A stretch of 64,000 nucleotides of DNA from a virus. This document shows, in pieces, positions 27,030 to 63,199 of the stretch (its first letter is position 1; each line of letters starts with the position of its first letter). Location of the stretch: positions 47,692 through 111,691 of IMG/VR virus record IMGVR_UViG_3300017917_003607. One strand, 5' to 3'. Made by a program: the position numbers and the translations under genes. The notes under the pieces were generated by a model. The model had not been told where the DNA came from. It searched no databases and was given only the letters and a program-made list of their open reading frames with translations.

Positions 27030-27032
27030 AAA

Positions 27033-27647: not shown

Positions 27648-27649
27648 TT

Positions 27650-28324: not shown

Positions 28325-28346
28325 AAAAATTTAATATAATAAGATT

Positions 28347-29159: not shown

Positions 29160-29164
29160 AAAAA

Positions 29165-30210: not shown

Positions 30211-30212
30211 TC

Positions 30213-33188: not shown

Positions 33189-33189
33189 A

Positions 33190-34185: not shown

Positions 34186-34198
34186 TAAAATTAAAATA

Positions 34199-34801: not shown

Positions 34802-35658
34802 AATTATTAATAATACAAGAAAACGGTAGACATTTAGAAAATAGAAACTACAGAGAGTGTTTTAATTTGCAAAGGGCTCTTCATCGAAAAAATATAGATG
34901 TAGTAGTTTGGGGTTTAGGTCATGATAACTTTAAACAGCCATTTAACGATATTATTAAAGACATAGACGTGATTATTCTTTTAGAAAATTATGAATCAAA
35001 TGGATGGTTACCTGATTTGAGTGGTATTAAAAAATTAAAAATATTTTGGAGTATAGATTCTCATTTAGTATTAATGAGTCATTTATCAACTGTGGTCAAA
35101 AACAAAATAGACATAGTGTTAAACTCAATCGAGTCTCACCAAATGTATTTTAAACAAAGTAAAACTTTTTATTTTCCAAACGCATACCCATCAGATTTAA
35201 TTTACCCCAAAGAAAACGTAGAAAAAAATATTTTTTTAGGTTTTTGTGGTTCTTTACTAAATCGCTCTGAAATTTTAGATAAATTAGAAAACAAATTTTC
35301 ACTTAAAAAAGACATATGGAAATTAGGTGATGAGATGGTTAAAACAATCAGCGGATATAAAATACACTTTAACAAAACTCTTTCAAACGACATTAACTAT
35401 AGGATTTTTGAAACAATGGGATGTAATACCTTGACATTAACTAACAAAACAGAAAATATAAACACATTTTTTAAAGACATGGAAAACATAGTAATTTATA
35501 ATAGTGAAAACGAACTGTTTGAAAAACTTAATTTTTTATCGTCTAACGATTCTCTAATAAGTCAGATTAGTAATTCAGGTTTTGAATTGGTTAAAAACAA
35601 TCACACTTATGATAATCGTGTGGACGTTTTACTTAAAATTATTAAAGATTACTTTTAA
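34798..35658 (+). CDS. glycosyltransferase, CgeB/GT4-like
   Basis: 286 aa. K-L-L-I-I-Q-E-N-G at the N-terminus, F-P-N-A-Y-P in the middle, L-G-F-C-G-S-L and, near the end, N-Y-R-I-F-E-T-M-G-C-N-T-L-T-L, the acceptor/donor helix seen in CgeB-type and GT4 enzymes. GT-B fold, role in the same glycan. Confidence 0.75.
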   Translation: MKLLIIQENGRHLENRNYRECFNLQRALHRKNIDVVVWGLGHDNFKQPFNDIIKDIDVIILLENYESNGWLPDLSGIKKLKIFWSIDSHLVLMSHLSTVVKNKIDIVLNSIESHQMYFKQSKTFYFPNAYPSDLIYPKENVEKNIFLGFCGSLLNRSEILDKLENKFSLKKDIWKLGDEMVKTISGYKIHFNKTLSNDINYRIFETMGCNTLTLTNKTENINTFFKDMENIVIYNSENELFEKLNFLSSNDSLISQISNSGFELVKNNHTYDNRVDVLLKIIKDYF

Positions 35659-35667
35659 TATTAAAAT

Positions 35668-36417
35668 ATGGATAATAGAAAAATCAGAAAGAAGAGTACT
35701 TCATTAAGTGGAGAAACTCAACCACAATTTAAATCAAAAAAAGAAATAATTGCGCAATTTATAAAAAAACAAACCAAAGAGAAATTTTTGACTGAAAATC
35801 AAAAACACTATTATAACATTTTAAAAGATAATCAAATTACAATATGTTCAGGACCTGCGGGTGTTGGTAAATCATATATTGCAATGAAGGCTGCGGTTGA
35901 TTTACTTCAGGACCCAAGTAACTCTTATGAAAAAATTATGATTGTTAGACCCGCGGTTGAGGCTGAAGAAAAACTTGGTTCATTACCTGGTGCTTTGGAA
36001 GAAAAATTAGACCCATATATAAGCCCTTCATATTACTTATTAAATAAATTAATAGGTAAGGAAAATAGAGAAAAATTAATCGAGTTGGATTTTATCGAAG
36101 TACAGGCATTGGCGTATATACGTGGGTGGAATATCGATAATACTATTTTGATATTTGAAGAAGCCCAAAACAGTACTCCAAAACAAATGAAGTTATTATT
36201 AACTAGAATTGGGTTTAATAGTAAATTTTTCATTTCAGGTGATTTAGAACAAACTGACAGATATAAAGATAAGACACAATCAGGTCTTTGGGATGCAATA
36301 AATAAATTCAGAGATATGGAAGATATTGGTGTTTTTGAATTTAATGAAAAAGACATAGTAAGGAATCCATTAATTACAAAAATCTTAAAAAGATACGAAG
36401 ATGAAGTTCGCTTTTGA
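35668..36417 (+). CDS. phoH: PhoH-family ATPase
   Basis: 249 aa. Walker A G-P-A-G-V-G-K-S, Walker B-like I-F-E-E-A-Q-N, and I-M-I-V-R-P-A-V-E-A-E-E-K-L-G-S-L-P-G characteristic of PhoH. Common in marine and freshwater T4-like phages, ATP-dependent, with suggested RNA or phosphate-related roles that are not settled. Overlaps the next gene by 17 bases. Confidence 0.92.
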   Translation: MDNRKIRKKSTSLSGETQPQFKSKKEIIAQFIKKQTKEKFLTENQKHYYNILKDNQITICSGPAGVGKSYIAMKAAVDLLQDPSNSYEKIMIVRPAVEAEEKLGSLPGALEEKLDPYISPSYYLLNKLIGKENREKLIELDFIEVQALAYIRGWNIDNTILIFEEAQNSTPKQMKLLLTRIGFNSKFFISGDLEQTDRYKDKTQSGLWDAINKFRDMEDIGVFEFNEKDIVRNPLITKILKRYEDEVRF

Positions 36418-37024
36418 TACTGACGAAGTTTTAAGAGACACATTATCAAAAATGAAAGCAACTTATGAAAAGTTCTTTATTGAGGACTATGTGTCTGAGG
36501 AGGGTGAAGAAGAATTTGAATACAAAATAATTGAACCCATAACAACACATAAATTTTCAGATTACTTCCTATTCCCGTCTGAAAGTGAATATATAAATTT
36601 TTTATATTTGGATTTTCCAATGAACATTTTTGGTCACTCACCATCAATGTCCGCAAATACTTTTAATACTTTTTCTGAGATACAAAAAAAAGTATTATCT
36701 AAAAGAGACAAGTTGAGTGTTATTGGTATGGGAGTTGCTAAAATAAAACCAGCATCATTATTTTTTTATTCAAAATACGGAATGGAAGTAGATAATATAC
36801 TATTCTATAATAAAAAAACAATAAAAAATATATGGTCAAAATTTGATGTTATTGTTACTGCAAATCCTGATTTGCTTAAAATCAAACCAAAAAATAAAAT
36901 AAGTATCAAAGTTTTAACTTCCTATAATGCAGAGTATGACTCTGATTTTACAATAGATTCATTGGAAGGTTTTACTTCGGTATATAATGAATTAAAATTA
37001 AAACATGTTAAAAGTATTAGGTGA
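36401..37024 (+). CDS. HAD-like protein
   Basis: 207 aa beginning M-K-F-A-F-D-T-D-E-V-L-R-D, a D-x-D motif I context as in HAD nucleotidases, but no clear motifs II-IV are visible. V-I-G-M-G-V-A-K and I-V-T-A-N-P-D could be beta strands of the same fold. Function unknown, may be a degraded or divergent phosphatase. Confidence 0.5.
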   Translation: MKFAFDTDEVLRDTLSKMKATYEKFFIEDYVSEEGEEEFEYKIIEPITTHKFSDYFLFPSESEYINFLYLDFPMNIFGHSPSMSANTFNTFSEIQKKVLSKRDKLSVIGMGVAKIKPASLFFYSKYGMEVDNILFYNKKTIKNIWSKFDVIVTANPDLLKIKPKNKISIKVLTSYNAEYDSDFTIDSLEGFTSVYNELKLKHVKSIR

Positions 37025-37271
37025 AGAATATTTCGTTGATTTTCAAAAAATCGAGGATTTGATTACAATTAAGCAAGAATTAACAGGTGATACTGAACAA
37101 AACGTTAGTATAGTAAAATTTGAACTAATTAAAACTATGTTAGACGTGGTATTAACTGAATCAACAGAATTAGATGAAAAGATGTCCATGAAAGGTAGTA
37201 ACGATTTAACAATACCATTCAAGATTGCATTTAACACTTTAATCAGATATAACATATTACAATCTTTTTAA
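37005..37271 (+). CDS. hypothetical small protein, 88 aa
   Basis: Acidic helical protein beginning MLKVLGEEYFVDFQKIEDLI. Overlaps the preceding gene by 20 bases and precedes a glycosyltransferase by 2 bases, so clearly in the operon. No domain recognised. Confidence 0.5.
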   Translation: MLKVLGEEYFVDFQKIEDLITIKQELTGDTEQNVSIVKFELIKTMLDVVLTESTELDEKMSMKGSNDLTIPFKIAFNTLIRYNILQSF

Positions 37272-37273
37272 TT

Positions 37274-38329
37274 ATGAGTACAGAACTTATCCCAAAAATT
37301 CAAGAATCAATTGAGAAACTAAAAAATAAAGAATGTAGAATTTATTTTTTAGTACAAGACACTAAAGGAAACGCTAAAGCTTCCGTAAGATTCATTTATG
37401 AAATCGCATATACATTGAGACAAAATGGTTTCAATAGTATTATTATGCATGAACAAAATGACTACAAAGGGGTATCGTCTTGGTTAAACGAAAAATACAT
37501 GACAATACCACATAAATCTATTGAAGAGCAGAGTTTGGAGCTTTCTCCTGAAGATTTTTTAGTCATACCTGAACTATATGGACACGTAATGGAACAAGTT
37601 GCAAAGTTCCCTTGTGGAAAAATAGTAATATCACAGAGCTATGATTATATATTAGAAACTTTGTCTCCTGGGGCAACATGGACACAGTATGGATTTTTCA
37701 AATGTATCACAACAAGCGAAGAACAAAAAAATTATTTGGAGCAGATTATGAAAAACGTTTCTTTTGATATTCTTACACCACAAATTAGCGAGTCTTTCAA
37801 AGAGAAAAAACTTCCACCAAAACCAATTATTTCAGTTCACACAAGAGACCAAAGAGATACCATGAAAATAATAAAAACTTTCTATTTAAAATATCCACAA
37901 TATAGATGGTTCACATTTAGAGACATGAGAGGATTGACAGAGTCTGAATTTGCAGAATTGTTAAAAGATTCGTTTGTTTCTGTTTGGGTAGATGATATAT
38001 CGTCGTTTGGTACCTTTCCCTTAGAAAGTATGAAAACAAAAACACCTGTGATAGGTAAAATCCCAAATGTAAAACCTGCTTGGATGAACGACCAAAATGG
38101 TATTTGGGTTAATGACACTTTATTAATTGTTGATGTTTTGGCTGAATTTATACAAAATTGGCTCGAAGATAATATTTCAGACCAACTGTACGACTCATCT
38201 TTGGAAACCGCAAAAAAATATTCCGATATTGAATTATTTGAAAAGGAAACTATTGAATTGTTTTCTGAATTTATAAACAAAAGACTCTCAAACTTTGATG
38301 AGCAATTACAAAAATTACAATCTAATTAA
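37274..38329 (+). CDS. glycosyltransferase, GT-B fold
   Basis: 351 aa. I-Y-F-L-V-Q-D-T-K-G-N-A near the start and A-S-V-R-F-I-Y-E-I-A-Y-T-L-R-Q-N-G-F mark the acceptor-side Rossmann unit. S-V-H-T-R-D-Q-R-D hinge and S-S-F-G-T-F-P-L-E-S-M-K-T-K-T-P-V-I-G mark the nucleotide-sugar binding unit of GT4-like enzymes. Confidence 0.75.
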   Translation: MSTELIPKIQESIEKLKNKECRIYFLVQDTKGNAKASVRFIYEIAYTLRQNGFNSIIMHEQNDYKGVSSWLNEKYMTIPHKSIEEQSLELSPEDFLVIPELYGHVMEQVAKFPCGKIVISQSYDYILETLSPGATWTQYGFFKCITTSEEQKNYLEQIMKNVSFDILTPQISESFKEKKLPPKPIISVHTRDQRDTMKIIKTFYLKYPQYRWFTFRDMRGLTESEFAELLKDSFVSVWVDDISSFGTFPLESMKTKTPVIGKIPNVKPAWMNDQNGIWVNDTLLIVDVLAEFIQNWLEDNISDQLYDSSLETAKKYSDIELFEKETIELFSEFINKRLSNFDEQLQKLQSN

Positions 38330-38331
38330 TT

Positions 38332-39141
38332 ATGGAAAATAATGTTAACATATCAGTAATCCTCCCTATTTCTTCAGCGTATGGGAAAGATTTCGACGAA
38401 CTTTTTGATAAAGCAATTGAATCACTAAAAAAACAATCTGTGGGTATTGGTGAATTAGTTATAGTTCATACAGACGAAGAAAAACTTTGTAAAAAGTTAG
38501 AAACATACAATTTTGAAAACTTGAATGTCACCAAAATATTAAACACAACAACCGAATTTGATTATGCAAGTCAAATTAATCTTGGTGTAAAAAACGCTAA
38601 AAATGATTGGGTTAGTTTTTTTGAGTATGATGATGAATATTCATTTATTTGGTTTAAAAATGTTAAAGAATATATTGATTATCATCCCGAATGTGACGGA
38701 TTCTTACCAATCGTGGTGGATGTAGATGAAAAAGGTATATTTGCAGGATATACTAACGAAGCTACCTTTGCAGCATCTTTTAACTCAGAATTGGGAATTC
38801 TTACTAATGACCTTTTAAATACATACCAAAACTTTCAGTCAAGTGGTATGGTTATTAAGAAAAGTGTTATTGAAAATTTTGGCGGTTTTAAAAAATCTAT
38901 GAAACTTACTTTTGTGTATGAGTTTTTATTAAGAGTCACTTATAATTCGGTTAGAATAATGACTATTCCAAGATTAGGTTACAAACACATCAATATGAGA
39001 GAGTCTTCTATTTTTTGGAACTATAAAAACGGAAAAACTCCAATGACAGACAACGAAGTGAAATTTTGGATTGAGACCGCAAAAAAAGAATACTTTTTTA
39101 ACTCGGACAGAAATATAAAATATGAAACAAGTAACTCTTGA
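38332..39141 (+). CDS. family 2-like glycosyltransferase
   Basis: 269 aa. I-S-V-I-L-P-I-S at the N-terminus, S-L-K-K-Q-S, A-K-N-D-W-V-S-F-F-E-Y-D-D-E-Y (metal motif), S-S-G-M-V-I-K-K and G-F-K-K-S. GT-A fold. Last glycan gene; its stop overlaps the ATG of the sigma-like gene (TGATG). Confidence 0.78.
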   Translation: MENNVNISVILPISSAYGKDFDELFDKAIESLKKQSVGIGELVIVHTDEEKLCKKLETYNFENLNVTKILNTTTEFDYASQINLGVKNAKNDWVSFFEYDDEYSFIWFKNVKEYIDYHPECDGFLPIVVDVDEKGIFAGYTNEATFAASFNSELGILTNDLLNTYQNFQSSGMVIKKSVIENFGGFKKSMKLTFVYEFLLRVTYNSVRIMTIPRLGYKHINMRESSIFWNYKNGKTPMTDNEVKFWIETAKKEYFFNSDRNIKYETSNS

Positions 39142-39899
39142 TGATTTTAGAAAGTGTCTATTCGAGTGGAAAAACAGAAGACGCTCAATCTAAACGTGGT
39201 AAGAAACCAACAACAACCACAAATTATTTTGACGTAAGAGAGGAGAACGCAGTGGTGTTATTCCTCAATGCAGAGACAATTGAAGAAAGAAATAAAATAT
39301 ATAATGAGTACCTGAAAAAGCCAATCGAAAAGATGGTTTCTTCAATTATAAGAAGGTATAAATTATATAGAAAAGATATGTCTTTTGATGAAATTCTGAA
39401 CGACACTCATTCTTTTTTAATTACCAAGTCAGATAAATTTGTACCCGATAAGAATAAGAAAGCATATTCTTATTTTGGTACAATATGTAAAAACTATCTG
39501 ATGGGGCAAATAATAAAAGACCAAAAAGACATCAATAGAAAAGTTTCTTATGAGGACATTTCATCTAATTTGGAAAATAGACCTGACATGGTTTATTATA
39601 TAGAAAACGACGCGGTTGAGAGTGATAAAATAATTCAAGACTATATTGATATGTTAAAAGAATTCATATCCAACAGTAATCTAAATGAAAATGAGATAAA
39701 GTTGGGTGAAGCGTTATTACAACTATTTGAGACATACGATGAAATATTTGTTGCAAACGACAATAAAAAGTTTAATAAAAACTTAGTTTTGTTATCTCTA
39801 AGAGAGATGACAAATCTTTCAACGAAAGAAATCAGGATAAGTATGAAAAGATACAAAAAATTATACTTTGATTTCGTAAAAAAAATAGACCTTAGATAA
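39141..39899 (+). CDS. 55: sigma-like late transcription factor (T4 gp55-like)
   Basis: 252 aa from ATG 39141 (an upstream TTG is rejected). Residues about 52-125 match sigma region 2 in layout: a helix I-Y-N-E-Y-L-K-K-P-I-E-K-M-V-S-S-I-I-R-R-Y, then F-D-E-I-L-N-D-T-H-S-F-L, F-V-P-D-K-N-K-K-A-Y-S-Y-F-G-T-I-C-K-N-Y-L, as in Y..d.dDl.Qe..l.l......fd......F.~Y~. A C-terminal helical part has T-N-L-S-T-K-E-I-R-I-S-M-K. T4 gp55 is a minimal sigma that recognises late promoters. Likely the factor reading the TATTTAT elements. Family call by pattern; promoter link inferred. Confidence 0.72.
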   Translation: MILESVYSSGKTEDAQSKRGKKPTTTTNYFDVREENAVVLFLNAETIEERNKIYNEYLKKPIEKMVSSIIRRYKLYRKDMSFDEILNDTHSFLITKSDKFVPDKNKKAYSYFGTICKNYLMGQIIKDQKDINRKVSYEDISSNLENRPDMVYYIENDAVESDKIIQDYIDMLKEFISNSNLNENEIKLGEALLQLFETYDEIFVANDNKKFNKNLVLLSLREMTNLSTKEIRISMKRYKKLYFDFVKKIDLR

Positions 39900-39913: not shown

Positions 39914-39920
39914 TATTTAT
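39914..39920 (+). promoter_or_regulatory. TATTTAT late-promoter-like element, 4-base spacing
   Basis: TATTTATAGATATG; heptamer ends 4 bases before ATG 39925, right after the operon terminator, so it starts the baseplate block. Confidence 0.65.
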
Positions 39921-39924
39921 AGAT

Positions 39925-40302
39925 ATGACTAGACCAAAAAAGAAAGAAATTCTTTTAAATAAAGAATCTATATTGTCTTTGATGCAGGAAATTTACAATG
40001 AACTTGTAGAACAGAGGTCAACGGCACTTAGAATTCAAAATAAAATGCTGTCTTTAATGAAAGACGCTTCAGATATGGCAGTAATTGGTCCTATCATAAA
40101 AGAACAACAAAAAATAATAAACGATACTGTCGAAAAAAAACTTAGTCTTTCTAAACTACAATCAACAATTTGGGAAAAGTCACAACAGAAGAATAACGAC
40201 GATAACTTTTCTATGTCAGATTTTGATGATAAATTAATTCAAGATTTATTAAACAAAGATATCTCAGATAGTAACATAGACGGTTATAAACTTAATAAGT
40301 AA
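39925..40302 (+). CDS. hypothetical phage protein, 125 aa
   Basis: Charged helical protein beginning MTRPKKKEILLNKESILSLM. Residues 20-110 are likely coiled coil. First gene of the 39.9-46.5 kb tail/baseplate block. No family recognised; tail assembly or chaperone role is possible. Confidence 0.5.
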   Translation: MTRPKKKEILLNKESILSLMQEIYNELVEQRSTALRIQNKMLSLMKDASDMAVIGPIIKEQQKIINDTVEKKLSLSKLQSTIWEKSQQKNNDDNFSMSDFDDKLIQDLLNKDISDSNIDGYKLNK

Positions 40303-44267: not shown

Positions 44268-44274
44268 TATTTAT
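44268..44274 (+). promoter_or_regulatory. TATTTAT late-promoter-like element, 5-base spacing
   Basis: TATTTATAGTTAATG; heptamer begins one base after the hub stop codon and ends 5 bases before ATG 44280. Confidence 0.6.
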
Positions 44275-44279
44275 AGTTA

Positions 44280-45773
44280 ATGTCTATACACAAATCATAT
44301 CTAAATAGAAATAATACAATTATTTATAATAGTTCTACAAACACAGGACAAAATCCTGTTACAGAACTTTTTTTTGGTAGGGTAGATAATACACTATCAA
44401 CGCCAGGATTTTCAAGATTCATATTCAATATAGATTTAACAGAACTTACAAACAAAATATCTTCAGGTGTAATATACACAGGAAGTCCAATGACACACGT
44501 ATTCAAAATGACCAATACAATTATGTATAATTATGAATTACTGAATACAACAACATCAGATGGTAGAAAAAGAGCAACAGGTTTTAATTTAAATTTACAT
44601 AGAATACCTAAATATAACCTTACAGGTTCTTCTCAAAATTGGGACGAAGGTGTTGGATATGATTATTACGATAATTCAAACATCAACTCTTCTAATGCAA
44701 GTTTAAGTTCACAAAACTATAGAGACAACGACAAATCTTACTCCAATAGACCATCTAATTGGACAAAAGCAACAACAATTAGTGGGTGGAGTGAATCAGG
44801 AATATATAACAACATAAACAGTGGTAGTTCTGTAAATTATTCAGCACTAACTTTGGTGGATACTCAATATTTTGAATTTGGAAATGAAAATATTGAGTTT
44901 GATATGACTAACGAAATAAATAGTATTTTAACAGGTGGGACTACAGGGGTTACTGGTTACATAATATCTTTTGACCCAGAACTAGAAAATATAACAGGAC
45001 TTACAGAAAATTATTCCGTTGGTTTTTTTACTCGCCACACACAAACTTTTTATGAACCATTTTTGGAAACATCATATGATGATTTAATTTTAGATAATAG
45101 AACAAGTTTTTTTGAAAAGAAAATAAATAAGTTATATCTATATTCATATATTGATGGGGTACCAACTAATTTAGATTTTAACCCTACAGTTACGATAGAA
45201 GACTCGAATGGTGATATACCTACAAACTGCACAGGATTAACTACAACATTGAGGACTGAGGGTATTTATGAGGTTTCAGTACCACCAATTACTGGTTATA
45301 CAACCCCATGTCAATTCAGTGATATTTGGAGTGGATGTACTTTGAATGGTATAAGTATTGGTAACATAACAAATGAATTTGTTTTAAGACCATACGGTGA
45401 GTATTATCAAATAGGGATTAATTCTAAAGACCCTCAGACATACGGATTTACTTTTTCAGGAATAAAACAAGATGAGAAAATTATTAATACAGACCTAAGG
45501 AAGGTTGTATTACAAATTAAACAAGCGTATACATCCAACGTAGTTTACCCCAATTTTAAAGCTTACTATAGAATCTTTGTTAAAGAAGGTAAAACAGAGG
45601 TTAACGTACAAGATTGGACAAGAATAAATCAAACATCAAATGAATATTATTTTATGTTTGACACTAAAGACAAAATACCAAATGAATATTTTGTCGATAT
45701 TAAAGTATTAACTTCAGGTGAGGTAGATATTTATAAAAGACAACTAAAATTTCAAATAGTTAATCAAAAATGA
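44280..45773 (+). CDS. tail structural protein, DNRLRE-like beta domain
   Basis: 497 aa beginning MSIHKSYLNRNNTIIYNSST. The first ~270 residues repeat the beta-sandwich pattern of DNRLRE-type domains (L-N-R-N-N-T-I-I-Y, N-F-S-x-F-I-F-N-I-D, F-D-M-T-N-E-I-N-S-I-L, F-F-T-R-H-T). The rest is beta-rich and ends F-Q-I-V-N-Q-K. Virion surface or baseplate-peripheral protein; no enzymatic motif. Confidence 0.55.
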   Translation: MSIHKSYLNRNNTIIYNSSTNTGQNPVTELFFGRVDNTLSTPGFSRFIFNIDLTELTNKISSGVIYTGSPMTHVFKMTNTIMYNYELLNTTTSDGRKRATGFNLNLHRIPKYNLTGSSQNWDEGVGYDYYDNSNINSSNASLSSQNYRDNDKSYSNRPSNWTKATTISGWSESGIYNNINSGSSVNYSALTLVDTQYFEFGNENIEFDMTNEINSILTGGTTGVTGYIISFDPELENITGLTENYSVGFFTRHTQTFYEPFLETSYDDLILDNRTSFFEKKINKLYLYSYIDGVPTNLDFNPTVTIEDSNGDIPTNCTGLTTTLRTEGIYEVSVPPITGYTTPCQFSDIWSGCTLNGISIGNITNEFVLRPYGEYYQIGINSKDPQTYGFTFSGIKQDEKIINTDLRKVVLQIKQAYTSNVVYPNFKAYYRIFVKEGKTEVNVQDWTRINQTSNEYYFMFDTKDKIPNEYFVDIKVLTSGEVDIYKRQLKFQIVNQK

Positions 45774-48287: not shown

Positions 48288-50138
48288 TTATCTCAATTCT
48301 CTCAAATCAAATGTTCTAACACCATCAACTGTGATTTTACCGTAGAAACGGTTGTTCACCATCTTCTTAGCGTATCTTGTCATGATACCTTTGATTGGTG
48401 TAAAGTTGAATGGGTTATACATTGTTGGAGTTAATTGTAGAGGAACATATGGTGCGTATACATAACCAGTGTCCAATAGAGAATTACCTTTGTGACCCAA
48501 CAACAATGTGTTTGGTGGGAAATAAGGGTCTCTATAAACTTGGTATCTACCTGCCAAAGTACCTACTCTCTCAATACCCATGTTGTATTGGTCCTGTTCA
48601 GGAGATGCGTTTGATACGTGGAAGTATTCCAAATCATCAAAAATAGCACTGATTTCAGAAGATACAACAATCCAGTTAGCTCCACCTCTTAAGGTAGATT
48701 TGTGGATTTGTGCTGAAATTTGGTTGATAGCAGTTATCAACGTTTGATTCCAGTCTTTTTGAGTATACTGTGTTAATGGATTAGATGAAGTACCTCTCTT
48801 CCAACCATTGTAGTCCCATCTCAAAGTCCAAGCCGCACCTTTTCTAAGGTCTCTCAAGATTTCTCTATCAATTTCAGCCGCAACTTGTTCAGACAATAAA
48901 GCTGTCAATTCAGCTTCAGCATCGATGTTATGGAACGCTGCAACGTCTTGAGCCAATTCAGGTGACCACTGAGCTCTTAATTTTCTTTCAGTTACTGAAA
49001 CAGTTACAGAATTCAAATCAAAAGAAACTTCACCGATTTGGTCTTCAAATTCCAACTCTTTGTAAATCTTGTAAGTACAAGTAAAGATGTTGTTAGTTGA
49101 TGCGATTGAGTTTGTTGTGATACCTGAGTATCCGTCTAAAGAACCAGAACCAACTGAACATGGAACTTGTGTATCAATTTCCAAATAAATGTTACCTTCT
49201 TGTGAACAAATGTTATCAAAAGTACCACCGTTACCGTCTGTTGGGAAAGTAGTTGTGTAAGGAGAACCATACTGAACAATACCCTGTCCGTATTTTTGAG
49301 TTACTACTCTAAACAACAATGGACCAGTACTCAATGAATTACCAGCGGTAGTTCCTGAGAAACCGTTACGTACTTGAGCAGCAACAGCACCAGCCGCAGT
49401 GTTTTGTTGTACAGTTAATGACGCCAAGAATTCTTCAGTATCCATTTCGTTACCGTTAGGTCCGATTAGTTTACCTTCACCTGCGGTGTTGAAACCTGAC
49501 ATAACTATCAATACTTTTCTGAATTCAGTATTTGCAGGATAACCTGAAGGTGTCAAAGTAGCTCCGTCCCATACAACAGTACAAGCTGTTACTGTTCTAG
49601 CAGAGAACTGACCTTTAGAATAGTCAAACAATCCTGGAGGGTCTAAAGTCGCCTCATTACCTTCATAAAATCTATCGTAAAGATTTTTTGTTGTACTATC
49701 ATAACCTGAATCTGGTGATGTAGGACCGTTAGGTGCTCCGTAAGGACCGTAGTGTTGTCCACCATTTGTTGGGTCAACACCACTGTTGTTACCAGTTGCG
49801 TAGTTTTGAATTTTAGGTACAAAGTAGAACAATTTACCGATAGGTAAGTTCATTGCTTGTACAGAAACGATGTCGTTAGCTAACAACTTAGAGAATACTC
49901 TTCTTACGATTGGGAATACAACCGTTTCGAAAGAACCGTCTGAAGATGTGCTAGCAGCTTCGTTTATTAAGTGTGATGCTTGGTTTTCATAAAGTTGAGC
50001 GATGTTTTCTTTAACATGACCTCTCAAACCTTCTAGGAACCCTAGCTTGTCCCATTTGTTAATAGTATCTTCTTTGATAACTTTAAGGTGCTTAAGACCG
50101 ATGTTACCAACAAGACCTGATTCTAATAATGCTCCCAT
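48288..50138 (-). CDS. 23: major capsid protein (T4 gp23-like)
   Basis: 616 aa. V-V-F-P-I-V-R-R-V-F-S-K-L-L-A-N-D-I-V-S-V-Q-A-M-N-L-P followed by K-L-F-Y-F is the conserved gp23 core, and W-S-P-E-L-A-Q-D and G-N-S-L-L-D-T-G-Y-V-Y-A-P-Y near the end also fit. Residues about 100-350 hold an enlarged Gly/Thr-rich insertion, likely a surface domain (T4 gp23 has 521 aa). Expected to be cleaved at its N-terminus by the prohead protease. No TATTTAT in front; read from the scaffold mRNA or an unrecognised promoter. Confidence 0.95.
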   Translation of the reverse strand: MGALLESGLVGNIGLKHLKVIKEDTINKWDKLGFLEGLRGHVKENIAQLYENQASHLINEAASTSSDGSFETVVFPIVRRVFSKLLANDIVSVQAMNLPIGKLFYFVPKIQNYATGNNSGVDPTNGGQHYGPYGAPNGPTSPDSGYDSTTKNLYDRFYEGNEATLDPPGLFDYSKGQFSARTVTACTVVWDGATLTPSGYPANTEFRKVLIVMSGFNTAGEGKLIGPNGNEMDTEEFLASLTVQQNTAAGAVAAQVRNGFSGTTAGNSLSTGPLLFRVVTQKYGQGIVQYGSPYTTTFPTDGNGGTFDNICSQEGNIYLEIDTQVPCSVGSGSLDGYSGITTNSIASTNNIFTCTYKIYKELEFEDQIGEVSFDLNSVTVSVTERKLRAQWSPELAQDVAAFHNIDAEAELTALLSEQVAAEIDREILRDLRKGAAWTLRWDYNGWKRGTSSNPLTQYTQKDWNQTLITAINQISAQIHKSTLRGGANWIVVSSEISAIFDDLEYFHVSNASPEQDQYNMGIERVGTLAGRYQVYRDPYFPPNTLLLGHKGNSLLDTGYVYAPYVPLQLTPTMYNPFNFTPIKGIMTRYAKKMVNNRFYGKITVDGVRTFDLRELR

Positions 50139-51611: not shown

Positions 51612-51821
51612 TTATTCAAAAACTTCGTCAATTTTACTCTCAGCTACCGAAGTGATTCTCCAATCATGTTGAAAACCTTTGAACTTGTCTGTTACTTTGG
51701 CTTCAACATCGGTTACATTGTAACCTTTAACGAGTTTTTCTTCTCTGATTTTTTTAATCTTACCTGAGTTTTCGTCAATTAAATCGTACTGTACTTTCGC
51801 TACAAAAAATTTTTCGTCCAT
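51612..51821 (-). CDS. DUF4494-like small protein
   Basis: 69 aa. F-F-V-A-K-V-Q-Y-D-L then E-E-K-L-V-K-G-Y-N-V-T-D-V-E-A-K-V-T resembles DUF4494 (F.c.v.Y......k....e.YLv.a.s.tEAE.ri), found mainly in Bacteroidota and their phages. Supports the host inference. Function unknown; placed between protease and scaffold genes. Confidence 0.55.
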   Translation of the reverse strand: MDEKFFVAKVQYDLIDENSGKIKKIREEKLVKGYNVTDVEAKVTDKFKGFQHDWRITSVAESKIDEVFE

Positions 51822-51827
51822 AATGTT

Positions 51828-52541
51828 TTATCTATGACCCAAAAAATCGTTTAATTTATTCATTAAGTCAAGCGATTTTCCCAATCCACCATTAATAGTC
51901 GGTTCAGATTTTTTTTCTACGTCAATATTTTCATCATAAAGTTGTCTGTCACCTTTATCTAAATAAAGATAAGCCCCAGGTGTTGACGGATTCATAACTA
52001 AGTCAAAACAGATAATTTCAAAGTCTTCCTGAACTTCATTATGTTCACCTTTTTTAGCCAAAGAACCAACACCTCTAGAAGAAATACCCATTCTCACACC
52101 TTGTCTCATTAAATTTGCTGCAATGTCTCCTTTTGTAGAAACAACACCTCTTTCATGAAAACCAGGTGAAGTCAATAATCTCAGTTTACCCATGAGCACA
52201 TTGTCATCCCACCATATATCATCTATTATGTGTGAAACACGGTCTAAGTCAATTAACGAAGATTCAGGGTGATTTAATTCTGATGTTGATAAACCTTTTT
52301 GTATTAAAGATTTATATTTCTCAGCTTCTCTTTTTAGAATTTTTTCAGGATAAATTCTACCATTTCTATTTGGTACACCATATTTCTGAAGTGTGGCATA
52401 AAAAACAAATGGTTTAGAATGTTCCAATTGAGTTTTTGCTCCCCCATAATTTTCCGTTAAAGAATCTTTCCAAGAGATACTTCCAGCGTCATATTCTATC
52501 AATATACCCTTACCAAGTTCATTTGGTCCTAATATTTTCAT
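51828..52541 (-). CDS. 21: prohead core protease (T4 gp21-like)
   Basis: 237 aa. G-V-P-N-R-N-G-R-I-Y-P, S-E-L-N-H-P (catalytic His) and G-I-S-S-R-G-V-G (catalytic Ser) are the gp21 family hallmarks, with F-D-L-V-M-N-P-S following. Cleaves scaffold and capsid precursors inside the prohead. TATTTAT lies 14 bases upstream of ATG 52541. Confidence 0.93.
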   Translation of the reverse strand: MKILGPNELGKGILIEYDAGSISWKDSLTENYGGAKTQLEHSKPFVFYATLQKYGVPNRNGRIYPEKILKREAEKYKSLIQKGLSTSELNHPESSLIDLDRVSHIIDDIWWDDNVLMGKLRLLTSPGFHERGVVSTKGDIAANLMRQGVRMGISSRGVGSLAKKGEHNEVQEDFEIICFDLVMNPSTPGAYLYLDKGDRQLYDENIDVEKKSEPTINGGLGKSLDLMNKLNDFLGHR

Positions 52542-52555
52542 AATTCTTTTTCATT

Positions 52556-52562
52556 ATAAATA
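52556..52562 (-). promoter_or_regulatory. TATTTAT late-promoter-like element (protease)
   Basis: Sense-strand TATTTATA ending 14 bases before ATG 52541. Confidence 0.5.
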
Positions 52563-52572
52563 TAAGAATTAA

Positions 52573-53019
52573 TCAAACTTTTAATTTTTCTTTTGTCTTT
52601 GAGTATTGAATTGTAAAATACTTAGAGTTAGATAATACTTTTGTGTAAACCTCTTTAATTAAATTTGACATCTCATTAGTTAATTCTTCTGATTTGAATT
52701 CTACATTTTCTTTTGTAAATAAAGTAATTTCTAAATTTAAAAACGAAGATTTTGTTAGTTTTATACCGCTAGTTCTTAAATCCATATCGACTATGAAAAA
52801 TTCTTTAAAATATTTCTTATTAACAACTTCTAAAATTTTATGTTTTATTGTCCTTGTAATTGACCCTACCGTTGTATTCCAATTATCTTTTTCCATTTTT
52901 GGTGTTACCCACGTTTGTAATACCAAATAAATTGATTTTAATTCTGTTGTGTCCACACTACCATAGTAACACTTAGCATCCCTGAATAATTCCAATTTGG
53001 ATGTTTTTCCTTTTTTCAT
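52573..53019 (-). CDS. hypothetical protein in head module, 148 aa
   Basis: Basic N-terminus, then alternating strands and helices (F-F-I-V-D-M-D-L-R-T-S-G-I-K-L; L-E-I-T-L-F-T-K). No motif recognised. Position between portal and protease genes is where T4 has small core proteins 67 and 68, but sequence does not support that equation. Confidence 0.5.
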   Translation of the reverse strand: MKKGKTSKLELFRDAKCYYGSVDTTELKSIYLVLQTWVTPKMEKDNWNTTVGSITRTIKHKILEVVNKKYFKEFFIVDMDLRTSGIKLTKSSFLNLEITLFTKENVEFKSEELTNEMSNLIKEVYTKVLSNSKYFTIQYSKTKEKLKV

Positions 53020-53105: not shown

Positions 53106-53112
53106 TATTTAT
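53106..53112 (+). promoter_or_regulatory. TATTTAT late-promoter-like element (bS21)
   Basis: TATTTAT ending 18 bases before the bS21 ATG at 53131; the leader between has no Shine-Dalgarno sequence. Confidence 0.5.
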
Positions 53113-53130
53113 TATCGTAACAACAAAAAT

Positions 53131-53325
53131 ATGATTGTAATTAAAATTGAAAAAGGGGAAAGTTTGGACAAAGCTTTAAAAAGGTATAAATATAAAGTTA
53201 TTAAAACCAAACAAATCGAACAATTGAGAGAAAGACAGGAATTTGTAAAAAATACGACAAGAAAAAGAGAAAAAATGAAAAAGGCTAAGTATGTTCAAAA
53301 AATTCAAGAAAGTAAATATCAATGA
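53131..53325 (+). CDS. rpsU: ribosomal protein bS21 homologue
   Basis: 64 aa. M-I-V-I-K-I-E-K-G-E-S-L-D-K-A-L-K-R-Y-K-Y-K, then L-R-E-R-Q-E-F and K-R-E-K-M-K-K-A-K-Y-V-Q-K-I-Q match bS21 over its whole length and resemble the Bacteroidota form (I-V-V...G-E-n-I-D-r-A-L-K-k-f-K..., R-R-q.F.kps..+r..m..A.Y.q). bS21 sits on the 30S platform next to the anti-Shine-Dalgarno. It should be incorporated into host ribosomes late in infection. Phage bS21 genes are known; this one lies inside the head module between minus-strand genes. Confidence 0.9.
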   Translation: MIVIKIEKGESLDKALKRYKYKVIKTKQIEQLRERQEFVKNTTRKREKMKKAKYVQKIQESKYQ

Positions 53326-53332
53326 TATTTAT
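53326..53332 (+). promoter_or_regulatory. TATTTAT late-promoter-like element, 4-base spacing
   Basis: TATTTATTAGTATG; ends 4 bases before ATG 53337 and follows the bS21 stop directly. Confidence 0.6.
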
Positions 53333-53336
53333 TAGT

Positions 53337-53624
53337 ATGAAAAAACTACAAAACCTTTATTCTAAAATTACGTGGTTCGTATCTGAAGTCGGTAAAATTT
53401 ACTCAAACGAAGATTCATATTTTTCAAAAAAGAGAATTGAATCGGGTATTGCGTTTATTGTAGGTCAGTGGGGTATGATTTATTTTCTTATAAAGAATAT
53501 TGCAACAATGACCGCATCAGATGTAGCAATTTGGTCTGGTGTTGAATTTGCATTAGCTGGTTATATGATTAGCCAAATCCAAAAAGAAAAAAAGACAGAG
53601 GAACCTAAAGAAGAAAACAACTAA
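53337..53624 (+). CDS. small membrane protein, two TM segments (holin candidate)
   Basis: 95 aa from ATG 53337 (upstream ATG 53322 would put the TATTTAT element in the coding sequence and is rejected). Two hydrophobic stretches, about residues 38-57 (G-I-A-F-I-V-G-Q-W-G-M-I-Y-F-L-I) and 63-82 (I-W-S-G-V-E-F-A-L-A-G-Y-M-I), then a charged tail K-E-K-K-T-E-E-P-K-E. This is holin-like topology, but no lysin is adjacent, so lysis role is only a guess. Confidence 0.65.
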   Translation: MKKLQNLYSKITWFVSEVGKIYSNEDSYFSKKRIESGIAFIVGQWGMIYFLIKNIATMTASDVAIWSGVEFALAGYMISQIQKEKKTEEPKEENN

Positions 53625-53657: not shown

Positions 53658-54386
53658 TTAAAGTCCTTCGGAAAGTTTTTTAAGTTTGTAATAGGATAAT
53701 GAATCTATTTCTGTCTTTTCAATCCTATTTTTAGTTTCCTGTATTTTTATTTTAGTTTCTTCGTCAGACTCTGAAATTAAATTCAATTTTGATATAATTT
53801 CATTTTTAAGTCTTTCAATACCTTCCGTCAATTCTTCTTTAGTTAATTTTAATATAGATTTTAATTCAAAAAGTTGTGACTCTGAAAGGTTAGAATATTC
53901 ATTTGAAAATGTGTCGGCAACAACACCAAACATTTTTTCTATGGGTATATTGATTGTTTCGGTTAATGTTTTTTCTTCTTTTTTACTATTTGTTAACATT
54001 TTGTGTAGTATTTTTTTAGACTCCACAAGTTTCACAAACTCTTCAGATGTTTGGGCAAAAACCAAATCATCTAAAAGTTTATAATTGTTTTCAACTGACT
54101 CATCTAAAGTCTCAACCCAATAATCAAACTCTTGGAATTGTTTTTTGTTTTCCTTAATAGTTGTTTTGATATCGTCAATAGATAGTCTTAAAAAATCGGT
54201 TGCAACATCTTCGGTCAAACTATTTATCTTCATTATTGACCCGTAGTTTAAATATATTTTAGCAACAGCTTTGTTATCTGATACAAACTCTTTGAATTCT
54301 CTAATTACTTTTTTAAATTCATCTGTTTTATAATTTGTAACCAAAGCGTTTTCAACGATTGATTTTAATAATCCAAAATTTCTCAT
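53658..54386 (-). CDS. hypothetical helical head-module protein, 242 aa
   Basis: Mostly helical, acidic and Lys/Glu-rich, with a coiled coil near residues 180-240. Downstream of the portal gene. Could be a core or scaffold-associated protein. TATTTAT ends 4 bases before ATG 54386, so it is transcribed separately from the portal. Confidence 0.5.
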   Translation of the reverse strand: MRNFGLLKSIVENALVTNYKTDEFKKVIREFKEFVSDNKAVAKIYLNYGSIMKINSLTEDVATDFLRLSIDDIKTTIKENKKQFQEFDYWVETLDESVENNYKLLDDLVFAQTSEEFVKLVESKKILHKMLTNSKKEEKTLTETINIPIEKMFGVVADTFSNEYSNLSESQLFELKSILKLTKEELTEGIERLKNEIISKLNLISESDEETKIKIQETKNRIEKTEIDSLSYYKLKKLSEGL

Positions 54387-54390
54387 ATTA

Positions 54391-54397
54391 ATAAATA
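54391..54397 (-). promoter_or_regulatory. TATTTAT late-promoter-like element, 4-base spacing
   Basis: Sense-strand TATTTATTAATATG; ends 4 bases before ATG 54386. Confidence 0.6.
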
Positions 54398-54399
54398 TC

Positions 54400-56235
54400 T
54401 TACTTATTTAATAGTTCATCAAGTTTATTTTCAATCTCAAGTAGCGACTTTCTACCTTTAGACAAATCAATCTCCTCCATACCTGATACCATGTCATTTT
54501 CTAAAATAAGATTTAAATCTTTATCTATTTTAGATTCAGGAGCCAAACCAGGTCCGCCTTCAGGAGGTGCACCTAATTCTTCACCGCCTGGAGGAGTTGC
54601 CTCTCCACCACCAATTTCAGGAGGAGCTCCACCACCAATGTCTGAAATACCTCCACCCGCACCACCTTCAGGTGCTGGCGCTCCTGCAGGTTCTTCAGGT
54701 TTTTTACCATAAAGTTTATCTATAGTATCGAATATTCCCGTGTGTATAATAACTTCAGGAGTTTTAGTTAACTCAGCACCAACAGCCTTTTCAATCCTCT
54801 GTTGTTGTAGGTCAAGTTTAATTTCTTCATCTGAAAAACCTAAAATGTGTTTTTTAGCCCAAGTTACAGACACTGGTCCAATTCCCTCAACTGCGGTAAC
54901 CGCGTCTTTATATAGTAACATTTTTTCTTTCCAAGTATCAATTTTTAACAAATCGGCCTGAGTGGACGGATTAGTTAAACCTAAGGTAAAGTTAGTTAAT
55001 TCATCTTCAAAACCTAAAATAAATAAATGAATAATTGCAATCTTATTCAATTCTTGTATCATAGATTTTTGAATCCTATTAATTGTTCTTGCAAAACGAA
55101 TATCTTGTAATGCTAAGTTTTTACCATCACCAACAACTTCTTCAAATCCCAAAAAAGCTTTAGGTACACGAAGAGCTGTTAATAATTTCTTTTGGATGTA
55201 TTCAATATCTGCGATTTCAGATAAATTTTGAGCTCCCGCCAATGTTTCAATTGGACTTGCTTGTGCTGGGTCTCTAACAGGTATAAAGAAATCTTGGTCA
55301 ACTGCCATTTGATTCATACGTAAATCTACATTACCTGTTTTAGGGTCAACAACTTGGTCCCTTTTGAATTTGTTTGCAATTCTTTGGATATATGGCTCAA
55401 CGTCCTTATCATCCATGTTACCTACAAATATTTTAAATACTCTTCTTTCAGGTGCTCTTGATGTTCTATAAATTAACATCGCGTCTTCTGAAAGTAATAA
55501 TTGTTTCCAAACCCTTCTTGCCTTTTCCAACATAGAAGTACCATAAGGAAGTTTTCTATCATCACCTAATAATCTAAAGTGGGCGACTTCCCATGTATTA
55601 AATTCCATGTCTTTAACTTTCCAAACAAATTTAAGACCTTTGGCTTCTTCTGAGGTACTATGAGCGGGTTTTACCTTCATACCCCTCTCTAATCTTTCAA
55701 TTTCTATATTTGGTAATTGTTGACAACCAACAATACCTTTTTCAGGGTCTAATTTAAGATAGACAAAGTTATCACCATATTTACAGGTATTTCTGGTCCA
55801 CATTGGTAAATTGGTGTTAATGTCCAACCTATTATTAAAGAGGTCGGCTAAAACCCCTTTTATACGTGAAGATTCAGAATAAATTTGAAGAATAAATCCA
55901 TCTTCATTAGTAGTTGTTGATTCTTCAGCGTATATGTCAAGAGCGGCTGAAATTTCAGGGGTGTATTCCATACTCTCATAGTCATAATATGAGGCCAATC
56001 TAGTTGGTTCATAATATACCGCTTGAGTATACAAGTTATTTTCAATTTTAGACCATTGTTGACCTAAATAATAACTTTGTTGGGCTTGTAGTTTTTGTTT
56101 TTCAAACTCTTGTTTATCGTCTGTTTTTAAAAGTTCTTTTTTATCGAACTTATATACTGGCGGCTGTTGACCTAAAGTTGAGTCAGGACCAAAAACTCTT
56201 GTAAGTCGTTGCCATATTGTAAAATTATCTGCCAT
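54400..56235 (-). CDS. 20: portal vertex protein (T4 gp20-like)
   Basis: 611 aa. Y-E-S-M-E-Y-T-P-E-I-S-A-A-L-D-I-Y-A-E-E-S, W-T-R-N-T-C-K-Y-G-D-N-F, L-P-Y-G-T-S-M-L-E-K-A-R-R-V-W-K-Q, Y-R-T-S-R-A-P-E-R-R-V-F and L-L-T-A-L-R-V-P-K-A-F-L-G are gp20 hallmarks. Forms the dodecameric DNA gate and nucleates the prohead. Residues about 500-570 are a Gly/Pro/Ala-rich tail not typical of T4 gp20. Confidence 0.95.
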   Translation of the reverse strand: MADNFTIWQRLTRVFGPDSTLGQQPPVYKFDKKELLKTDDKQEFEKQKLQAQQSYYLGQQWSKIENNLYTQAVYYEPTRLASYYDYESMEYTPEISAALDIYAEESTTTNEDGFILQIYSESSRIKGVLADLFNNRLDINTNLPMWTRNTCKYGDNFVYLKLDPEKGIVGCQQLPNIEIERLERGMKVKPAHSTSEEAKGLKFVWKVKDMEFNTWEVAHFRLLGDDRKLPYGTSMLEKARRVWKQLLLSEDAMLIYRTSRAPERRVFKIFVGNMDDKDVEPYIQRIANKFKRDQVVDPKTGNVDLRMNQMAVDQDFFIPVRDPAQASPIETLAGAQNLSEIADIEYIQKKLLTALRVPKAFLGFEEVVGDGKNLALQDIRFARTINRIQKSMIQELNKIAIIHLFILGFEDELTNFTLGLTNPSTQADLLKIDTWKEKMLLYKDAVTAVEGIGPVSVTWAKKHILGFSDEEIKLDLQQQRIEKAVGAELTKTPEVIIHTGIFDTIDKLYGKKPEEPAGAPAPEGGAGGGISDIGGGAPPEIGGGEATPPGGEELGAPPEGGPGLAPESKIDKDLNLILENDMVSGMEEIDLSKGRKSLLEIENKLDELLNK

Positions 56236-56275: not shown

Positions 56276-58051
56276 TTATCTTCTTCCACTACCGAATAAC
56301 CATAAATACTTTTCATAATCACTTTTTGTTGGGTTAGTACCAAATCTATCACCATAAGATGAAGGTGACATAACAGGTAGACTTGGGTTAAAATCTATAA
56401 CATCTTTATGGTCGTTACTATTTTGCACACTCCATGAATTCAATATTGCCTTAGTTTGTTCTGTAACTTTTTCTAATTGATTATAAGAATTTTGTCCAAC
56501 ATAAAGAGCCATTGCGATTGACATAATTAAGTCATCATGATGTCCTTTCATGTGGTCAGGTCGTCCATTTATATAAACAAAAGTGTTCATTTCACTCAAT
56601 AGTCTTGGTGAATAAACCTTAAATCCATGTCTCAAACCCTCCTCAAACGCTGAAATAATCTGAACACGTTTAGCATTAAAGTTAATACCTGGTATTTTTT
56701 CCATAGCTTTTGAGTTATATTCCCAAACATTTGCGTAGTTGACACCATCAACGTATAAATTTCTATAACCCATTTCTTGTAACTTTCTTGAGGTGGAAAC
56801 ACCCATACCTCCAGTAATATCGATTACGATAAACGCATCATAGTAAACACCCCATTTATACGCAATTTCAGCGGCAACGTCAGGTGGGATTTTTCCAAGA
56901 TATTCCGCAACTTGCTCTCTCTCATCAAAATCAATTATTTGAAATGACGTGTAATCTTCTGAGTCACCTCTTGAAACGTCAATACCCATAATATATCTAT
57001 GTCCAACTACGGGTTCTTTCCAAATCCACAATTGATTTTGAACCATCTTAGTTTGTGGTTGACAAACCATCTCAGTTCTAATTTTTTCAATAATCTTACT
57101 TTCAAAAACATTATCACCCGAACCCAAGAAATTACACTCTAATTCTTGTGAAATTTTTCTTCTATCAAATTTTAATTTCTTAGCCATTTTTTCAAACCAA
57201 TCAGAATGTGGTTTGTATCCTTGGTCCATTAATTTTTTAAACTCTTCAAAATCTCTCTCACTTTGTTGAACAGTTTCAAACGAAATTGTTTCAACATCCT
57301 TATATTCGTCTCTATTCAAATAATAATGAATAATGTCTTTAACTTTTATAAATTGTAAATCTTTTGTGTATCTTGGGTCTCTCCACCAAAACATTTCAGT
57401 AATTTTAAAATTATTCATGTTTTTTAAAGATTGGTCATAGATTGGATAATAAATCGCATCGTAACCGTTAGGTGTGGAAATAACAATAACTTTACCACCC
57501 GTAGATAGTGAAGCCATACAAGCAGCCCAAAAGTCATCACCCGCTTCAATATATGCTGCCTCATCAAATATCAATACGGTGGGGGTATAACCACGAAGAG
57601 CGTCATTAGATGTTGCAACAGCTTTAACCTCACACCCGTTTGTGAGTTTCCAATGACGAGCAGCGTTTTTCTCAGTAGAAAATTCCACACTCATCCAGTT
57701 TGGCCACTGTTCTGTAAATTGTTTTATTTTATTTGCAAATTCTACAGACGTATCAAGTTTGTTTGCAATTATTAGAATTTTTTCGGGTTTTTCTTTTTTT
57801 GCAAATGCTATTTTTTTTGAAACCCAAGCGGCGGTAACTGTAGATACACCTGCCTGTCTATACTTTAAGGCTATATTTTCCTCGTAATTTTCATAGTCTT
57901 CAACCAATGTTATTTGGTCAGCAAATAAATCTAAAGGTACAAATTTTGAAACGGTGTTATCGTAAGTTTGGAGGTATGTTCTCAGCGCGTAAGGAGTACT
58001 TTTAATACATTTGGCATACTCAATAAGGGCTTGTTCTCTTGTTATACTCAT
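56276..58051 (-). CDS. 17: large terminase subunit (T4 gp17-like)
   Basis: 591 aa. Walker A variant Y-R-Q-A-G-V-S-T (residues about 64-71), Walker B L-I-F-D-E-A-A, coupling motif V-I-S-T-P-N-G, then nuclease acidic motifs G-I-D-V-S-R-G-D, F-I-V-I-D-I-T-G-G and H-H-D-D-L-I-M-S. Packages and cuts concatemeric DNA. TATTTAT lies 5 bases before ATG 58051. The small terminase is not recognised nearby. Confidence 0.95.
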   Translation of the reverse strand: MSITREQALIEYAKCIKSTPYALRTYLQTYDNTVSKFVPLDLFADQITLVEDYENYEENIALKYRQAGVSTVTAAWVSKKIAFAKKEKPEKILIIANKLDTSVEFANKIKQFTEQWPNWMSVEFSTEKNAARHWKLTNGCEVKAVATSNDALRGYTPTVLIFDEAAYIEAGDDFWAACMASLSTGGKVIVISTPNGYDAIYYPIYDQSLKNMNNFKITEMFWWRDPRYTKDLQFIKVKDIIHYYLNRDEYKDVETISFETVQQSERDFEEFKKLMDQGYKPHSDWFEKMAKKLKFDRRKISQELECNFLGSGDNVFESKIIEKIRTEMVCQPQTKMVQNQLWIWKEPVVGHRYIMGIDVSRGDSEDYTSFQIIDFDEREQVAEYLGKIPPDVAAEIAYKWGVYYDAFIVIDITGGMGVSTSRKLQEMGYRNLYVDGVNYANVWEYNSKAMEKIPGINFNAKRVQIISAFEEGLRHGFKVYSPRLLSEMNTFVYINGRPDHMKGHHDDLIMSIAMALYVGQNSYNQLEKVTEQTKAILNSWSVQNSNDHKDVIDFNPSLPVMSPSSYGDRFGTNPTKSDYEKYLWLFGSGRR

Positions 58052-58056: not shown

Positions 58057-58063
58057 ATAAATA
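58057..58063 (-). promoter_or_regulatory. TATTTAT late-promoter-like element, 5-base spacing
   Basis: Sense-strand TATTTATACTTAATG; ends 5 bases before the terminase ATG. Confidence 0.65.
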
Positions 58064-62945: not shown

Positions 62946-63188
62946 TTACAATTTCTTGTATTGATATATTTTACTGATTTTTGATGAAAAAAACTTACCT
63001 TGTGACTCGGCCATTCTGAATTGTACATATACTTCATGTGGAACATCTTTGTATTCATACTGTAAACCACTGCTAAATTTAACAGTCATGGTTTTATCCG
63101 CGGTATCATACTTACTTTCGGTAATGTTTGATGATTTAATAATATTGTGAATTACCGTACCTTTAATTTCTTCTCTTAAAATTGCCAT
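62946..63188 (-). CDS. KTSC-domain protein
   Basis: 80 aa. S-S-N-I-T-E-S-K-Y-D then L-Q-Y-E-Y-K-D-V-P-H-E-V-Y and A-E-S-Q-G-K-F-F fit the KTSC fold (S.i..i.Yd......v.f..G..Y.Y..Vp..v...l..a.S.G..fn). KTSC proteins are small and of unclear function; one group acts in RNA ligase-like or counter-defence settings. TATTTAT is 4 bases upstream. Confidence 0.75.
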   Translation of the reverse strand: MAILREEIKGTVIHNIIKSSNITESKYDTADKTMTVKFSSGLQYEYKDVPHEVYVQFRMAESQGKFFSSKISKIYQYKKL

Positions 63189-63192: not shown

Positions 63193-63199
63193 ATAAATA
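63193..63199 (-). promoter_or_regulatory. TATTTAT late-promoter-like element, 4-base spacing
   Basis: Sense-strand TATTTATTAGTATGG; same 3' sequence TATTTATTAGTATG as the membrane protein site at 53326. Confidence 0.6.

What the first reader, a model, noticed from the sequence alone, without database searches (positions are those of the whole stretch)
53106..53325. Phage bS21 in a probable Bacteroidota phage
The 64-aa product is a full-length bS21 resembling the Bacteroidota type. In those bacteria bS21 helps hide the anti-Shine-Dalgarno of 16S rRNA, so a phage copy could set how host ribosomes choose starts. The phage genes largely lack Shine-Dalgarno sequences and many late mRNAs may be leaderless, so a late-expressed bS21 could bias ribosomes to phage late mRNAs. 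Phage bS21 genes are known; the link to leaderless late mRNA is new inference.
Basis: partly seen in the sequence, partly recalled or inferred. Interest (0 to 1): 0.75.

Follow-up and report, generated by a model that had tools for sequence, protein, structure and literature searches.

The report
Phage ribosomal protein bS21, late-expressed
A virus of Bacteroidota bacteria carries its own copy of ribosomal protein bS21, as an already described group of lake phages does; new here is that the phage copies lack the feedback signal of Flavobacteriaceae bS21 genes and that the phages have a late-type promoter which often sits so close to a gene that its mRNA should start at the start codon.

Summary
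Window 53131-53325 (+) encodes a 64-aa bS21 of Bacteroidota type (Pfam 2e-9; best solved match F. johnsoniae bS21; Tyr54 kept). It lies on the strand opposite to T4-like TerL, portal, protease and capsid genes. That is the arrangement reported by Chen et al. 2022, who already proposed late expression and ribosome substitution, so the core idea is not new. I add four results. (1) TATTTAT is the most enriched word upstream of start codons and has two preferred spacings: 4-6 nt from ATG (predicted leaderless) or 12-18 nt (short leader). T4 lacks the first class. This supports 'some late mRNAs are leaderless' by sequence only. (2) 43 of 45 distinct phage bS21 gene/upstream variants carry TATTTAT, in this window at 18 nt, so this bS21 mRNA itself is predicted to have a ~12-nt leader. 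(3) None of 81 phage bS21 loci has a Shine-Dalgarno, whereas Flavobacteriaceae rpsU genes carry the extended SD used for autoregulation; phage bS21 should escape that control. (4) bS21-less relatives have the same promoter, and leaderless share does not follow bS21, so the proposed bS21-leaderless link is not supported. Ribosome incorporation and mRNA bias remain untested.

The parts
53131..53325 (+). phage bS21 (64 aa, Tyr54, signature YKVIKTKQ at 21-28)
53106..53112 (+). TATTTAT promoter-like motif of bS21, 18 nt before ATG; predicted ~12-nt A-rich leader
   Evidence: motif present at clade-fixed spacing in 43 of 45 distinct phage bS21 gene/upstream variants
53326..53332 (+). TATTTAT directly after the bS21 stop codon, 4 nt before the ATG of the next gene (leaderless type)
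   Evidence: conserved in L018-L024
53337..53624 (+). small protein with hydrophobic segments, holin-like at best, downstream of bS21
   Evidence: 87% identical in L018-L025; phrog_20 holin only E 0.28
52573..53019 (-). 148-aa gene divergent from bS21; probably the 'bS21_CN' neighbour of Chen 2022 (by position, not tested by sequence)
   Evidence: orthologue beside bS21 in all 10 contigs
51828..52541 (-). prohead protease; TATTTAT at 52556-52562, d=14
53658..54386 (-). 242-aa gene; TATTTAT 54391-54397, d=4 (d 13-14 in six relatives)
54400..56235 (-). T4-like portal gp20
56276..58051 (-). terminase large subunit; TATTTAT 58057-58063, d=5
48288..50138 (-). major capsid protein gp23; no TATTTAT within 60 nt upstream
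39141..39899 (+). divergent phage sigma factor, candidate late sigma for TATTTAT
62946..63188 (-). KTSC-domain gene; intrinsic terminator, then TATTTAT (63193-63199), then ATG at d=4
39914..39920 (+). TATTTAT, d=4, of gene 39925-40302; d 4-6 in all 8 contigs that have the gene
44268..44274 (+). TATTTAT, d=5, of gene 44280-45773 (d 14-16 in six relatives)

Best explanation
The gene is a phage-borne paralogue of Bacteroidota bS21, of the kind described by Chen et al. 2022. It is transcribed from its own TATTTAT late-type promoter, probably read by a phage-coded sigma factor, as separate structural-gene promoters are. The protein most likely takes the bS21 slot on the 30S platform, left open or exchanged late in infection. 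It keeps Tyr54, so it should keep the anti-Shine-Dalgarno (ASD) folded away. Flavobacteriaceae rpsU carries an extended SD and is translated best when bS21 is missing; the phage gene has no SD, so it is made irrespective of bS21 supply. The outcome would be a supply of bS21 under phage control that keeps ribosomes in the ASD-closed state that initiates best on SD-less messages (which phage late mRNAs are) and keeps host rpsU down. Shown here: family membership, residues, synteny, motif, lack of SD. Taken from papers: function of Tyr54 and of the rpsU SD, transcription of related phage bS21 genes with structural genes. Inferred: promoter function, late timing in this phage, incorporation into ribosomes, any effect on mRNA choice.
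For: Family and residues: (Tyr54 in 39/39 distinct phage proteins). Synteny: of 51 relatives with bS21 found or with enough sequence to tell, 48 carry it downstream of TerL on the opposite strand; Chen 2022 report the same plus co-expression with structural genes, 'not transcribed as an operon'. SD contrast: dG with ASD, phage median +0.7, strongest -4.8 (n 81); Flavobacteriaceae rpsU mostly -13.5 to -17. rpsU autoregulation and Y54A/deltaC effects: PMC9976891. Motif: 29x; 73 ATGs at d 4-6 against 21.6 expected; 35 / 6 / 45 family entries at d 4-6 / 7-11 / 12-18; 294-kb relative alone: 32 / 10 / 40; p 5e-7 and 6e-4; early block 1/28 against 23/74, p 0.003. Sigma factor.
Against: No expression, ribosome or transcript-start data for this phage. 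The host is not identified; Saprospiraceae-type rpsU genes have no SD, so the escape argument holds only for Flavobacteriaceae-like hosts. bS21 is not needed for this way of life: immuto and two IMG/VR relatives show none (immuto fully read, the other two are fragments). Phage and host mRNAs are both SD-less, so closing the ASD would not by itself favour phage over host. The 'early' block was defined by gene content and strand, not by expression.
Confidence: 0.55

Rival explanations
1. One reading: phage bS21 specifically tunes ribosomes towards leaderless late mRNAs.
For: bS21 sits among late genes, and more than half of the TATTTAT promoters of this record have leaderless spacing (12 leaderless, 8 leadered).
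Against: The motif and some leaderless spacing occur in relatives without bS21; leaderless share does not follow bS21 (p 0.47); orthologous late genes switch between the two spacings among phages that all have bS21; capsid and portal genes lack the leaderless spacing.
Confidence: 0.06
2. Plain supply: the phage only tops up a loosely bound, limiting ribosomal protein late in infection; phage bS21 is functionally the same as the host's and has no selective effect.
For: Family match over the full length and Tyr54 are kept; bS21-deficient ribosomes initiate poorly on SD-less mRNA (PMC9976891).
Against: Phage proteins share a signature at positions 21-28 (YKVIKTKQ; K27 38/39, Q28 39/39) that hosts lack, as also reported by Chen 2022 for this region; pure supply would not need a separate sequence type.
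Confidence: 0.3
3. TATTTAT is not a promoter but a translation-start element in the mRNA.
For: Tight spacing to ATG in one class; A-rich starts matter for initiation in F. johnsoniae (PMC6847099).
Against: Two separated spacing classes; the A-peak 5-8 nt after the motif moves with the motif, not with ATG; leaderless-type genes often have an intrinsic terminator just upstream (10/64 against 17/570, p 1e-4); T4 shows its late motif at 15-41 nt.
Confidence: 0.08
4. Non-ribosomal use of bS21 (RNA binding elsewhere, or packaging into the virion).
For: Chen 2022 raise virion packaging; bS21 has been reported in another RNP (PMC12054373, title and abstract only).
Against: Tyr54, the ASD-contacting residue, is kept in all phage proteins.
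Confidence: 0.05

Closest known systems
bS21-encoding freshwater Bacteroidetes myoviruses, clades a-e (Chen et al. 2022, PMC9723584)
   Same: bS21 on the opposite strand among TerL, portal, protease and MCP; Tyr54; similar genome size class (IMG/VR relatives of 242-297 kb); low GC; a conserved neighbour gene
F. johnsoniae bS21 / rpsU (PDB 7jil; McNutt et al. 2023, PMC9976891)
   Same: Same family, length and Tyr54
   Different: Phage signature at residues 21-28; no extended SD; TATTTAT motif upstream
T4 late promoters TATAAATA / gp55 (gp55 and its promoter: own knowledge)
   Same: Single AT-rich -10-like element ahead of structural genes, phage sigma
   Different: Other sequence (TATTTAT); many of the promoters predicted leaderless, whereas T4 spacings were 15-41 nt
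Flavobacterium phage immuto (MW353175)
   Same: T4-like head gene order, TATTTAT upstream of genes, Flavobacterium host
   Different: No bS21; TerL 28% identical; mostly leadered spacing

Membership tests
Ribosomal protein bS21 (PF01165) | Matches the family model over its length | tested here: met
   E 2.1e-9, profile 2-54 of 55
Bacteroidota-type bS21 | Aromatic residue at position 54 that stacks on A1534 | tested here: met
   Tyr54; 39/39 distinct phage proteins Tyr, 48/50 host proteins aromatic
Bacteroidota-type bS21 | Sits on the 30S platform and hides the ASD | not testable with these tools
   needs ribosomes
bS21 phages of Chen et al. 2022 | bS21 on the strand opposite to TerL, portal, protease, MCP | tested here: met
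   same orientation to TerL in 48 relatives
bS21 phages of Chen et al. 2022 | TerL within about 70% of the described clades | not tested
   their sequences are not in the collections; IMG/VR relatives with the same layout have TerL 68-95% identical
bS21 phages of Chen et al. 2022 | Late expression with structural genes | not testable with these tools
   no RNA data for this phage
Host-type autoregulated rpsU | Extended SD before the gene | tested here: not met
   dG +0.6 in the window against about -16 in Flavobacteriaceae
T4-type late sigma (gp55, phrog_234) | Significant match of window 39141-39899 to the gp55 family | tested here: inconclusive
   8 of 9 orthologues match, best E 0.011; sigma-factor folds lead the structure matches, but mean pLDDT is 67 and no E is below 0.001
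Leaderless mRNA | -10-like signal with its first T about 12 nt before ATG (criterion of PMC3160421) | tested here: met
   12 genes of this record at d 4-6, i.e. first T at -11 to -13
Leaderless mRNA | Mapped 5' end at AUG | not testable with these tools
   needs 5'-end sequencing

The most novel reading that the evidence does not exclude
Phage bS21 is a feedback-free copy that takes the host's bS21 autoregulation out of play: made late without an SD, it fills ribosomes, keeps the ASD closed, silences SD-bearing host rpsU, and leaves a ribosome pool suited to the phage's SD-less, partly leaderless late mRNAs.
Probability: 0.25. Interest if true: 0.78.

Novelty: new member of a known kind. Interest (0 to 1): 0.5.

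Why it matters
Why phages carry bS21 more often than other ribosomal proteins is open. The contrast between SD-less phage bS21 genes and SD-controlled Flavobacteriaceae rpsU gives a concrete, testable reason: escape from a known bS21 feedback loop. The two-spacing TATTTAT motif gives a genome-wide prediction of leaderless and short-leader phage mRNAs in bacteria whose own transcripts are mostly leadered, so 5'-end mapping and ribosome profiling of one cultivated relative would test it.

Tried and rejected
Rfam and tRNA scans of the window: nothing. Reading Jha et al. 2021 for ASD contacts: not held. PDB profile search with the sigma candidate: only spurious weak hits. bS21 plus the downstream small gene as a functional pair: rejected as a general feature, because the downstream gene is found only in the nearest relatives and has its own promoter motif. 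Link of bS21 to leaderless mRNA: tested against bS21-less relatives and not supported. Exact host: not determined. Annotating the rest of the record: only partly done.

Full report
Identity and setting. The ORF at 53131-53325 (+) is a 64-aa bS21 (PF01165 E 2.1e-9). Its closest solved relative is F. johnsoniae bS21, 7jil_z. The window is part of a 111,691-bp IMG/VR virus record with one S21 gene. Around it on the minus strand lie T4-like TerL, portal, prohead protease and gp23 capsid genes. A scan of IMG/VR gave 225 bS21-encoding stretches. A TerL scan gave 80 loci of 68-95% identity; bS21 was found on the opposite strand in 48, and was absent from three with at least 5 kb after TerL. One of those three records has an S21 elsewhere (G016); the other two (G014, G015) show none.

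What is already known. Chen et al. 2022 (PMC9723584) described bS21-encoding Bacteroidetes myoviruses with this gene order and Tyr54. They reported transcription of bS21 with structural genes, and proposed substitution into host ribosomes with preference for phage transcripts. A term search of that paper's main text found no mention of promoters, leaderless mRNA or autoregulation.

Protein. 39 of 39 distinct phage proteins have Tyr54, which in F. johnsoniae stacks on A1534 and helps hide the ASD (PMC9976891). Phage proteins share YKVIKTKQ at 21-28, where hosts have mostly RKFDKTG-type sequences. This is the region Chen et al. also found divergent. dN/dS to near relatives is far below 1, with dS saturated.

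No Shine-Dalgarno. The duplex energy of the 22 nt upstream with ASD ACCUCCUUUCU has a median of +0.7 and a strongest value of -4.8 kcal/mol over 81 phage bS21 loci (many closely related). Flavobacterium and Capnocytophaga rpsU give about -13.5 to -17; most Saprospiraceae-type rpsU genes have none. McNutt et al. 2023 showed that the extended SD of rpsU is read best by bS21-deficient ribosomes, an autoregulation. Phage bS21 should be outside this loop; this is inference, and it holds only for hosts with an SD-bearing rpsU.

The TATTTAT motif. It is the most enriched 7-mer upstream of ATGs in this record (24 genes, 29-fold). I counted the distance d from motif end to ATG. Counting every motif copy in ten contigs without regard to gene calls, ATGs at d 4-6 number 73 (21.6 expected from control words), d 7-11 31 (34 expected), d 12-18 98 (50 expected). 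By gene family the counts are 35, 6 and 45. A 294-kb relative alone gives 32, 10 and 40 (p 5e-7 and 6e-4). Orthologues switch between classes without intermediates: gene 53658-54386 has d=4 in the window's clade and 13-14 in six others; gene 44280-45773 has 5 against 14-16. In the leadered class an A peak lies 5-8 nt after the motif whatever d is, which is where the A of ATG falls when d=4-6. This agrees with transcript starts about 6 nt after the motif, hence leaderless mRNA at d 4-6, by the criterion of PMC3160421. Leaderless-type genes have an intrinsic terminator close upstream more often than motif-less genes (10/64 against 17/570, p 1e-4); window 62946-63188 is the clearest case. In a 50-kb late stretch of T4 the late motif lies at 15-41 nt. 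In F. johnsoniae 87% of transcripts with a probable promoter have leaders over 10 nt (PMC6847099). Gene calls were my own longest-ATG calls, so start sites are approximate, and related contigs are not independent; family counting reduces but does not remove this.

Late character. In this record the plus-strand block of glycosyltransferase, PhoH and DNA-metabolism genes has the motif in 1 of 28 genes, the rest in 23 of 74 (p 0.003). Calling the motif 'late' rests on this and on analogy with T4. A candidate reader of the motif is the 252-aa protein at 39141-39899. It matches Sigma70_r2 weakly, and 8 of 9 orthologues match the gp55 late sigma family (best E 0.011). Its low-confidence model (mean pLDDT 67) matches mostly sigma factors, none at E below 0.001.

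bS21 and leaderless mRNA. 43 of 45 distinct phage bS21 gene/upstream variants carry the motif, at clade-fixed spacing. In the window d=18, so bS21 mRNA is predicted to have a leader of about 12 nt. Two IMG/VR relatives without bS21 and the cultivated phage immuto, in which no S21 was found, have the motif too. The ratio leaderless:leadered is 41:24 in the window's clade, 17:43 in other bS21+ relatives, 32:43 in the 294-kb bS21+ relative and 7:29 in bS21- phages. The second and last do not differ (p 0.47), while the window's clade differs from the other bS21+ relatives (p 1.5e-4). Leaderless share thus goes with clade rather than with bS21; with only three bS21- records this test is weak.

Verdict. 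A real phage bS21 of a described kind. The mechanism I favour is supply of a feedback-free, ASD-closing bS21 late in infection. Preference for phage mRNAs is possible but unshown, and a special role for leaderless mRNA is not supported by comparison.

Noticed in passing
window 53326-53624: A small gene (hydrophobic, weak holin hint) starts 11 nt after the bS21 stop, with TATTTAT exactly between; 87% identical in L018-L025, 59% in L028, not found in the other fetched relatives.
   Followed up: partly
window 39141-39899: Divergent sigma factor conserved in the compared relatives that span this region; three 242-297 kb relatives carry in addition a second, clear sigma-70 protein.
   Followed up: partly
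window 62946-63188: KTSC-domain gene with terminator, promoter motif and ATG packed within about 45 nt.
   Followed up: yes
L076, L079, L080 and L026-L041, upstream of bS21: TTGAC/GTCAA elements, some palindromic (AGTCAAAATTTGACTT), upstream of the bS21 TATTTAT; a possible operator or divergent promoter.
   Followed up: no
window 51612-51821: DUF4494 protein inside the capsid gene block; the cultivated phage immuto also encodes a DUF4494 protein.
   Followed up: no
window 21198-39141: Cassette of glycosyltransferases, methyltransferases and a nucleotide-sugar epimerase in the block without TATTTAT promoters.
   Followed up: no
L266-L268, L289 (immuto): Other words (CAATAAT, GGTATCA) rank above TATTTAT upstream of genes, pointing to a second promoter or start signal.
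   Followed up: no
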